Source: Candidatus Thorarchaeota archaeon | GTDB taxonomy: Archaea; Asgardarchaeota; Thorarchaeia; Thorarchaeales; Thorarchaeaceae | Assembly: GCA_003345545.1 (NCBI GenBank) | Contig: PRDH01000044.1 | Coordinates: forward strand, 124,001-188,000 | Length of the DNA stretch: 64,000 nucleotides | Direction: 5' to 3' | Part shown: positions 36,704 through 37,826 of the stretch, in pieces | How the letters are laid out: each line of letters opens with the position of its first letter | How positions within the stretch are numbered: the first letter of the stretch is position 1 | The notes under the pieces: generated by a model | The model's database searches: none | Told to the model about the DNA's origin: nothing | Seen by the model: the letters and a program-made list of their open reading frames with translations, nothing else | Translations under genes and position numbers: made by a program

Positions 36704-36783
36704 TTGGCTATAGCGCAATCCTTTTAACGGTTGTGTAAGGAGAACGCACAACCGATTCGCACCAGCGATGGAGTTTGAATATA

Positions 36784-37146
36784 ATGGTAGAAGACATCAG
36801 CTCATCGGAGCTAGATCAAGTAATCGCAAGTAATAGAGTGGTTTTCGTGGACTGTCATGCTGTCTGGTGCGGGCCTTGCAGGACGCTCGGCCCAATCCTC
36901 GAAGAGGTCCATGAAAAGTATCAGGGCAGAGGACTCAAGGTCGTCAAGATAGACGTTGACCATAATCGAGAATTCAGTATGAAGAACCAGATAACCGGAG
37001 TTCCGAGTGTTTTGATCTATGCCGATGGCAAGAGGGTAGTCTTCGACGATGGCGCTGGCAGAAAGACCGACAAGCTCGTTGGCGTCATGCCACCTGAAGT
37101 ATATGCACAGATAGCAGACGACCTCCTCGCTGAGGAAGCAACATAG
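36784..37146 (+). CDS. trxA: Thioredoxin 1
   Basis: A 120-residue thioredoxin with the redox motif WCGPCR, the conserved FVDCHAVWCGPC strand and cis-Pro in TGVPSVLIYADG. It reduces protein disulfides in the cytosol. ATG 36784 (MVEDISSSEL) was chosen over TTG 36775; GGAG lies at 36770-36773. Its second strand has VDCHA where the VDFWA consensus of most thioredoxins is expected. Confidence 0.93.
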   Translation: MVEDISSSELDQVIASNRVVFVDCHAVWCGPCRTLGPILEEVHEKYQGRGLKVVKIDVDHNREFSMKNQITGVPSVLIYADGKRVVFDDGAGRKTDKLVGVMPPEVYAQIADDLLAEEAT

Positions 37147-37204
37147 GCGAATTTCTGTGGGTTGACAACAGTTGCAGGAAACTTGGACAAAGTCGGACAG
37201 GTGC

Positions 37205-37212
37205 TTATATAG
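37205..37212 (+). promoter_or_regulatory. TATA box for the candidate RNA at 37232
   Basis: TTATATAG is centred about 24 nt before the predicted 5' end of the structured region. No protein start lies within the next 200 nt, which argues that the transcript begins with RNA structure. Confidence 0.5.
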
Positions 37213-37231
37213 TCCAGTCTGAAAAACTCCT

Positions 37232-37380
37232 GTGAGGATAATCTGTCACGAACTCTGTCCTCACGGAGTCCGGCCCAGTGCCGTTCTCTGGGCGGACAAC
37301 ACTTCGGTGTCCAAGTTTGTCCAACAAACAATGAACGGTACTACGGGGAAGGATTAGTCTTCCCCGTGAGACCTCCTCAC
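37232..37380 (+). ncRNA. Candidate structured non-coding RNA or long structured leader
   Basis: About 150 nt between the two thioredoxin genes fold into a closed multi-branch structure. A 7-bp terminal helix pairs GTGAGGA (37232-37238) with TCCTCAC (37374-37380). Inside are a 10-bp hairpin with one bulge (37268-37278 with 37288-37297), a UUCG-capped hairpin (37299-37310), a 5-bp hairpin (37316-37328) and a perfect 9-bp hairpin (37343-37351 with 37359-37367). A TATA box precedes it at the right distance. A second TCCTCAC at 37258-37264 could compete for the 5' strand. I see no RNase P, SRP, tRNA or C/D-box signature, and no protein frame. Confidence 0.5.
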
Positions 37381-37463
37381 TCTTCTTTGATTCACACAAT
37401 GACAACGTTCAATACCTCGTGAGCGGGAGTCACTATAGGTGTAGGCAGCGTTTGGTGAGAGAT

Positions 37464-37826
37464 GTGACCTCCGAAGAAGTGGACGCTGAGAAGAAGAAGA
37501 CCAAGCTTCTCTTTGTTGATTGTTGGGCAGAATGGTGCGGACCATGCAAAGCACTCAGTCCAATACTGGATGAGCTAGAAGAAAAGTACAGAAACAATCA
37601 GGATATTCGATTCCTGAAGTTGAACACAGACGAGCACCAAGCATTTGCTATCAGGAACAAAATCAGGGGAATCCCATGTGTGCTCATCTTTTTCAATGGA
37701 GAGCCAGCAAGACTCAAGATAAGGAACAAAGATACGGGAGTCACAACCGTTGTTGATAGGTTGATTGGATTGAGACCTGCAGAGCACTTTGAGTCTGCTA
37801 TCGAGTCCCTGCTCAAGGGAAAGTGA
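37464..37826 (+). CDS. Thioredoxin 2
   Basis: A 120-residue thioredoxin with FVDCWAEWCGPCKALSP and cis-Pro in IRGIPCVLIFFNGEP. Compared with thioredoxin 1 it has an insert around KIRNKDTGVTTVVD and a basic C-terminus. The frame opens at GTG 37419, but GTG 37464 fits better: GGTGAG lies 6 nt upstream, and CTATAGG (37433-37439) is 28 nt upstream, compatible with leaderless initiation. The two thioredoxins are divergent in sequence and probably serve different partners. Confidence 0.88.
   Translation: MTSEEVDAEKKKTKLLFVDCWAEWCGPCKALSPILDELEEKYRNNQDIRFLKLNTDEHQAFAIRNKIRGIPCVLIFFNGEPARLKIRNKDTGVTTVVDRLIGLRPAEHFESAIESLLKGK

What the first reader, a model, noticed from the sequence alone, without database searches (positions are those of the whole stretch)
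37232..37380. Candidate undescribed structured RNA between two thioredoxin genes
A TATA box is followed by about 150 nt forming a terminal helix and four internal hairpins, including a UUCG tetraloop and a perfect 9-bp stem. The 5' GTGAGGA can pair with either of two TCCTCAC copies, suggesting two alternative folds. No known RNA signature was recognised.
Basis: seen in the sequence. Interest (0 to 1): 0.75.

Follow-up and report, generated by a model that had tools for sequence, protein, structure and literature searches.

The report
Mobile guide-RNA element in Thorarchaeota
The stretch between the two thioredoxin genes is a roughly 180-base mobile DNA element, scattered in many copies through Thorarchaeota genomes, that carries its own promoter and apparently makes a guide RNA for TnpB, the transposon-encoded, RNA-guided DNA-cutting enzyme related to CRISPR Cas12.

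Summary
Window 37159-37339 is one copy of a dispersed, roughly 180-230 bp element. I collected 121 distinct near-complete copies, all in one Asgard family (Thorarchaeota). The element has sharp ends with a GG core, direct TTGGACA motifs at the left end, an internal TATA box, and an RNA of five helices including two pseudoknots, supported by covariation. Four congeneric genomes have the same thioredoxin intergenic region without it; the strong 9-bp hairpin at 37343-37367 is a separate native feature. The element's right end is shared, sequence and pseudoknots alike, with transposons that encode an IS607-family serine recombinase (TnpA) and a divergent ~712-aa TnpB with an intact RuvC triad. So it is a non-autonomous IS607-type element carrying a promoter-driven, stand-alone omegaRNA; the host DNA after its right end would be the guide. 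In three loci this 'guide' matches unoccupied alleles in relatives directly behind the core. TnpB co-occurs with the element (28 of 34 positive genomes, 0 of 13 negative), although none was found in the window's own genome. Guide activity is inferred, not shown. New variant of a known kind (OMEGA/IS607).

The parts
37159..37339 (+). Whole non-autonomous element, left GG core to right GG core plus the following T
   Evidence: Sharp identity boundaries in alignment of 37 copies and nhmmer over all loci; homologous intergenic regions lack it
37159..37160 (+). Left GG core (exchange dinucleotide)
   Evidence: Filled versus empty sites at other copies: L042/L267 ATTAAG-GG-TGCC, L003/L285-L287; IS607 GG exchange (PMC6188088, PMC10711439)
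37161..37199 (+). Left end GTTGACAACAG...AAACTTGGACAAAGTCGGACA with direct TTGGACA-like motifs, probable TnpA binding sites
   Evidence: Same left end precedes tnpA in autonomous copies L175, L238, L240, L250; binding is inference from IS607 ends (PMC6188088)
37205..37211 (+). TATA box TTATATA, most often 28 nt before the first helix
   Evidence: TATA-like match in 100 of 121 solo copies; spacing 28 nt in 50 copies
37233..37339 (+). omegaRNA scaffold (predicted transcript start near 37233)
   Evidence: Five helices, 96.2% of cells paired, 42 double-change cells versus 10.7 in shuffles
37233..37263 (+). Helix 1: 37233-37239 with 37257-37263
   Evidence: specific to the solo form
37264..37306 (+). 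Helix 2: 37264-37269 with 37301-37306, encloses helix 3
   Evidence: Pair 69/110 is AU 15, GC 9, GU 6, CG 1
37274..37292 (+). Helix 3: CCCAG 37274-37278 with CTGGG 37288-37292, loop TGCCGTTCT
   Evidence: CG/UA covariation in solo and in tnpB-borne copies
37280..37339 (+). Pseudoknot A: loop GCCGTT 37280-37285 with 3' tail AACGGT 37334-37339
   Evidence: 97.9% of cells paired; also in tnpB-borne copies
37294..37322 (+). Pseudoknot B: GGACA 37294-37298 with TGTCC 37318-37322
   Evidence: Pair 100/126 is GC 19, UA 10, CG 2; also in tnpB-borne copies
37308..37325 (-). Inverted TTGGACA-type motifs at the right end (TGTCCAAGTTTGTCCAAC), possible TnpA sites overlapping the RNA
   Evidence: Sequence comparison with the left end; binding is inference
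37337..37338 (+). Right GG core
37340..37359 (+). Predicted guide of this copy (host DNA): ACTACGGGGAAGGATTAGTC
   Evidence: Inference from IS607 TnpB reRNA architecture (PMC10711439); at other loci the equivalent 20 nt match empty alleles
37343..37367 (+). Native hairpin of the thioredoxin intergenic region, NOT part of the element
   Evidence: Present in G001, G004, G010 and G012, which lack the element

Best explanation
Window 37159-37339 is a non-autonomous (MITE-like) IS607-family element that carries a stand-alone omegaRNA gene. Shown by sequence: it inserts at a GG core without target duplication, shares both ends with autonomous elements encoding an IS607 serine recombinase (TnpA) and a ~712-aa TnpB, and has its own TATA box and a covarying RNA with two pseudoknots ending at the element's right edge. 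Inferred: TnpA made elsewhere moves it. The archaeal promoter transcribes the scaffold and runs into the flanking host DNA, whose first ~16-20 nt become the guide. TnpB made in trans binds the scaffold and cuts alleles that lack the insertion, where GG stands directly before the guide sequence, so that repair restores or spreads the element. The small element thereby uses the larger one's proteins while supplying its own guide at every site.
For: (1) Dispersed copies: 6 in the own genome, 34 of 228 Asgard genomes, all in one family; all 108 matches of a strict pattern among 84,980 species genomes are Thorarchaeota or unnamed archaeal MAGs. (2) Empty sites with a GG core, including homologous thioredoxin intergenic regions without the element. 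(3) Right end shared with tnpB elements, in frame with the TnpB C-terminus (S-A-V-P-G-R-T), with the same helix 3 and both pseudoknots, supported by covariation; left end shared with tnpA elements; L175 is a deletion derivative joining left end, tnpA fragment, tnpB tail and right end. (4) TnpA: NF033518 E 1.3e-53. TnpB: PF07282 E 7.5e-15, guided_TnpB E 1.4e-15, invariant D487/E596/D689, and an AlphaFold model whose 40 PDB matches at E<=0.001 are all Cas12, TnpB or Fanzor chains, best 1.4e-9. (5) Covariation. (6) Co-occurrence with the 712-aa TnpB: 28/34 versus 0/13, Fisher p 1.9e-7. (7) Guides of three loci match empty alleles at 17/18, 19/20 and 20/20 directly after GGT or GGAT. (8) C is depleted just before the left GG (7/94, p 2.5e-4) although it precedes GG at the right end, as expected if a motif protects the element's own copy.
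Against: No transcript or protein-RNA data. Neither the cognate TnpB nor an IS607 TnpA was found in the window's own genome, though that assembly is 93% complete and repeats break assemblies. Inherited (orthologous) copies diverge about as fast as their flanks in several groups, so selection on the RNA after insertion is not shown; conservation may reflect selection on transposing lineages only. The T after the right GG is almost fixed (111 of 121), and whether it comes from target choice or from the element is unresolved; at one site (L041) relatives have GGA or GGG.
Confidence: 0.8

Rival explanations
1. A MITE whose RNA is inert: the right end is conserved because TnpA binds it as DNA, and the omegaRNA fold is a remnant of the parent transposon.
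For: It is mobile and has motif repeats at both ends. Orthologous copies evolve about as fast as their flanks. The window's genome has no detected cognate TnpB.
Against: Solo copies have a TATA box and two helices that are not seen in the tnpB-borne copies. Covariation includes base pairs not expected from DNA-protein recognition. The own-genome copies score among the highest of all (120-145 bits).
Confidence: 0.14
2. The copies are host-retained guide RNA genes used by a TnpB-derived regulator or defence protein in trans, with mobility now incidental.
For: The own genome and five others carry copies but no cognate 712-aa TnpB. The own genome has two ~550-aa TnpB-like proteins that appear to lack the RuvC-II glutamate and lie next to a large nuclease-like protein.
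Against: The ~550-aa family has its own, different 3' RNA and fits the element's distribution less well (29/34 versus 5/13). Insertion sites look random and intergenic.
Confidence: 0.05
3. A cis-acting leader, riboswitch or independent small RNA belonging to the thioredoxin genes, as the finding implies.
For: Position between two thioredoxin genes and a TATA box.
Against: Other copies lie beside unrelated genes in varied orientation; four congeners have the thioredoxin pair without it.
Confidence: 0.01

Closest known systems
IS607-family transposons with TnpA, TnpB and reRNA (ISXfa1, IS607, IS1535; PMC10711439, PMC6188088)
   Same: Serine recombinase, GG core, no inverted repeats or target duplication, short direct motifs at the ends, reRNA at the right end running into host DNA
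   Different: This copy has no genes, has its own archaeal promoter and an added 5' helix; its relatives' TnpB is ~712 aa rather than ~390 aa; restricted to Thorarchaeota in the searches made
RAGATH-18-derived reRNAs of IS607 TnpB (PMC11061315)
   Same: Guide RNA of IS607 TnpB; 36% of RAGATH-18 RNAs were also not next to a TnpB
   Different: Rfam scan of solo and tnpB-borne loci gives no RAGATH-18 match; different structure and sequence
omegaRNA processed from tnpB mRNA (PMC10278001)
   Same: Scaffold overlaps the 3' end of tnpB, guide downstream
   Different: Here the stand-alone copies have a promoter of their own and no mRNA to be processed from
Stand-alone trans-acting omegaRNAs of IscB in Ktedonobacter (own recollection of Altae-Tran 2021; not found in the library)
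   Same: Many dispersed guide RNA loci apart from the nuclease gene
   Different: IscB/Cas9-type and bacterial; here TnpB/IS607-type and archaeal, with transposon ends on every copy

Membership tests
IS607-family element (non-autonomous member) | Exchange at a GG dinucleotide, no target duplication | tested here: met
   Empty versus filled sites L042/L267 and L003/L285-L287; one site (L041) is ambiguous by one base
IS607-family element (non-autonomous member) | Ends shared with elements encoding an IS607 serine recombinase | tested here: met
   L175, L238, L240, L250: left end followed by tnpA; NF033518 E 1.3e-53
IS607-family element (non-autonomous member) | Mobilised by TnpA | not testable with these tools
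   Needs a transposition assay
omegaRNA/reRNA of TnpB (OMEGA) | Structured RNA at the right end, next to or overlapping a tnpB gene in full elements | tested here: met
omegaRNA/reRNA of TnpB (OMEGA) | Partner protein with TnpB fold and RuvC D-E-D triad | tested here: met
   partner is in relatives, not found in the own genome
omegaRNA/reRNA of TnpB (OMEGA) | Flanking host DNA acts as guide for cleavage beside a transposon-associated motif | tested here: inconclusive
   Three guides match empty alleles behind GGT or GGAT; activity untested
omegaRNA/reRNA of TnpB (OMEGA) | RNA expressed and bound by TnpB | not testable with these tools
   No RNA-seq or pull-down available
RAGATH-18 or any other Rfam family | Covariance-model match above the gathering score | tested here: not met
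Cis-regulatory leader of the thioredoxin genes | Conserved at the orthologous locus, co-oriented with a downstream gene | tested here: not met

The most novel reading that the evidence does not exclude
In lineages such as the window's own genome, where neither the cognate TnpB nor TnpA was found, the dispersed promoter-driven omegaRNAs form an array-less set of host-used guide RNA genes working in trans with another TnpB-derived effector, possibly the ~550-aa TnpB-like protein lacking the RuvC-II glutamate and its large PD-(D/E)xK-like neighbour, for regulation or defence.
Probability: 0.06. Interest if true: 0.9.

Novelty: new variant of a known kind. Interest (0 to 1): 0.62.

Why it matters
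omegaRNAs are usually seen as by-products of the tnpB gene's own mRNA. Here a miniature element has separated the guide RNA from the nuclease, given it its own promoter and an extra helix, and multiplied in Asgard archaea. If the RNA works, each insertion makes its own guide against its empty site, which would be a simple RNA-guided retention or homing strategy for a gene-less element. The partner TnpB is unusually large and divergent, so it is also a new candidate RNA-guided nuclease. The many near-identical copies with known empty sites make guide, motif and target predictions directly testable.

Tried and rejected
Rfam at gathering level and at E<=10: only junk. Riboswitch or leader: rejected by orientation and empty sites. 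Two alternative folds and the UUCG loop: rejected, not conserved. Viral origin: strict pattern absent from viral contigs. The ~550-aa TnpB-like family as partner: has its own 3' RNA and fits less well. Purifying selection on orthologous copies: inconclusive. Structure prediction of the large protein's first 666 residues failed (pLDDT 35). Literature: no paper in the library joins TnpB with Thorarchaeota, and none found on promoter-driven solo TnpB guide RNAs; most subscription journals are not held, so prior description cannot be excluded.

Full report
What is there. The finding lies between two thioredoxin-like genes (36775-37146 and 37419-37826, both + strand). The 149-nt stretch folds better than all shuffles and has no Rfam match. 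A DNA search of the own genome returned six copies (78-86% identity for the five others), and a search of 59 relatives returned copies in 26 genomes. The repeated unit is window 37159-37339, not 37232-37380.

Anatomy. Alignment of 37 copies shows sharp ends, GGGTTG...AACAGCTGC at the left and ACAATGAACGGT at the right; 121 distinct near-complete copies were later collected, nearly all 176-230 bp. From left to right: GG, a left end with two direct TTGGACA-type motifs, in some copies an extra ~10-40 bp, a TATA box, and an RNA. A TATA-like match is found in 100 of the 121 copies, most often 28 nt before the first helix. The structure I named has five helices, two of them pseudoknots. On 32 sequences 96.2% of cells are paired, with 42 double-change cells against 10.7 +/- 3.1 in shuffles, and all slid controls are far below. 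The best single case is pair 100/126 of pseudoknot B: GC 19, UA 10, CG 2.

Distribution. A covariance model finds the element in 34 of 228 Asgard genomes, all in the window's own family, none in the rest of the phylum (scored with stricter filters and at most 14 candidates a genome). A strict pattern scan of 84,980 species genomes gave 108 stretches; those listed are labelled Thorarchaeota or unnamed archaeal MAGs, and none was in viral contigs. The pattern is strict, so distant relatives could be missed.

It is mobile. Joined flanks of element-bearing sites match relatives in one piece. At L042 the filled site reads ATTAAG-GG-[element]-GG-TGCCCGTC and the relative's empty site ATTAAG-GG-TGCCCGTC; L003 behaves the same way; L041 has relatives with GGA or GGG and is ambiguous by one base. 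At the window's locus, G001, G004, G010 and G012 have the thioredoxin pair without the element. Orientation to neighbouring genes varies.

What kind of element. About twenty loci match only the 3' part of the model, and upstream of it in most lies a ~712-aa reading frame, or a piece of one, ending in a zinc-ribbon and RuvC-III motif. It is a TnpB: PF07282 E 7.5e-15, guided_TnpB E 1.4e-15 but below NCBI's cut-off, with all three RuvC acids invariant in eleven sequences. The predicted fold (pLDDT 73) matches only Cas12, TnpB and Fanzor chains at E<=0.001. The RNA core CCAGTGCCGTTCCTGG is in frame with the TnpB C-terminus S-A-V-P-G-R-T. In these copies helix 3 and both pseudoknots are kept, with covariation in helix 3 and pseudoknot B, while the TATA box and helices 1 and 2 are not seen. 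Full elements begin with the same left end and an IS607-type serine recombinase (NF033518 E 1.3e-53). L175 is a deletion derivative joining left end, tnpA fragment, tnpB tail and right end. GG exchange, lack of inverted repeats and target duplication, and direct motifs at the ends are the published marks of IS607 (PMC6188088); in IS607 TnpB the base just past the right end belongs to the scaffold, followed by the guide (PMC10711439).

Partnership. The 712-aa TnpB is found in 28 of the 34 genomes with the element and 0 of the 13 family genomes without it (Fisher p 1.9e-7; genomes of one family are not independent). A second TnpB-like family (~550 aa) fits less well (29/34 versus 5/13, p 0.003). 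The own genome has neither the 712-aa TnpB nor an IS607 TnpA at the thresholds used. It is 93% complete in 82 contigs, so absence is not proven.

Guide. The 20 nt after the right end match unoccupied alleles in relatives: L042 19/20 behind AAGGGT, L041 20/20 behind TGGAT, L079/L089 17/18 behind CAGGT. This is also what plain insertion would give, so it shows only that the prediction is consistent. Two further hints: C is rare before the left GG (7 of 94, p 2.5e-4) but the rule before the right GG, as expected if a motif spares the element's own copy; and the base after the right GG is T in 111 of 121 copies and pairs in pseudoknot A. Against a retained function, orthologous copies diverge about as fast as their flanks in several groups.

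Verdict. The identity as a non-autonomous IS607-type element with an omegaRNA right end is well supported (about 0.93). Expression and guide activity are inferred (about 0.75). The category is known; the promoter-driven, gene-less, multi-copy archaeal form with a large divergent TnpB appears to be a new variant, within the limits of the literature available here.

Noticed in passing
window 37343-37367: Native hairpin between the two thioredoxin genes, kept with changes on both arms in four congeneric genomes; perhaps a transcription or processing signal.
   Followed up: partly
L238:2926-7902 (+), L240, L237, L241, L245, L250: A ~1650-1860-aa protein of no known family lies on the opposite strand between tnpA and tnpB in large IS607-type elements; its conserved G.VDL...VLEIKTK...QL..Y motif resembles RecB/Cas4-type PD-(D/E)xK nucleases.
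   Followed up: partly
L232:1944-3614 (own genome C22), L233:2599-4245 (own genome C16), L234-L236: A ~550-aa TnpB-like family in which the RuvC-II glutamate appears replaced by glycine (VALGRL/VAIGRL); several copies sit divergently beside a relative of the same large protein. Possible nuclease-dead RNA-guided system.
   Followed up: partly
G227, G224, G018 and others (residues 445-557 of P0004): Many short dispersed pieces match only the C-terminal end of the ~550-aa TnpB-like protein; they may be a second family of stand-alone guide RNA elements.
   Followed up: no
L232-L236, just downstream of the ~550-aa gene: Conserved 3' stretch GGAACACAGAAGTTTCTT...GTTCACTCA, probably that family's own right-end RNA, different from the one in this finding.
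   Followed up: partly
L037 (G008:C50): Three solo elements within 4 kb, separated by single genes, on one contig.
   Followed up: no
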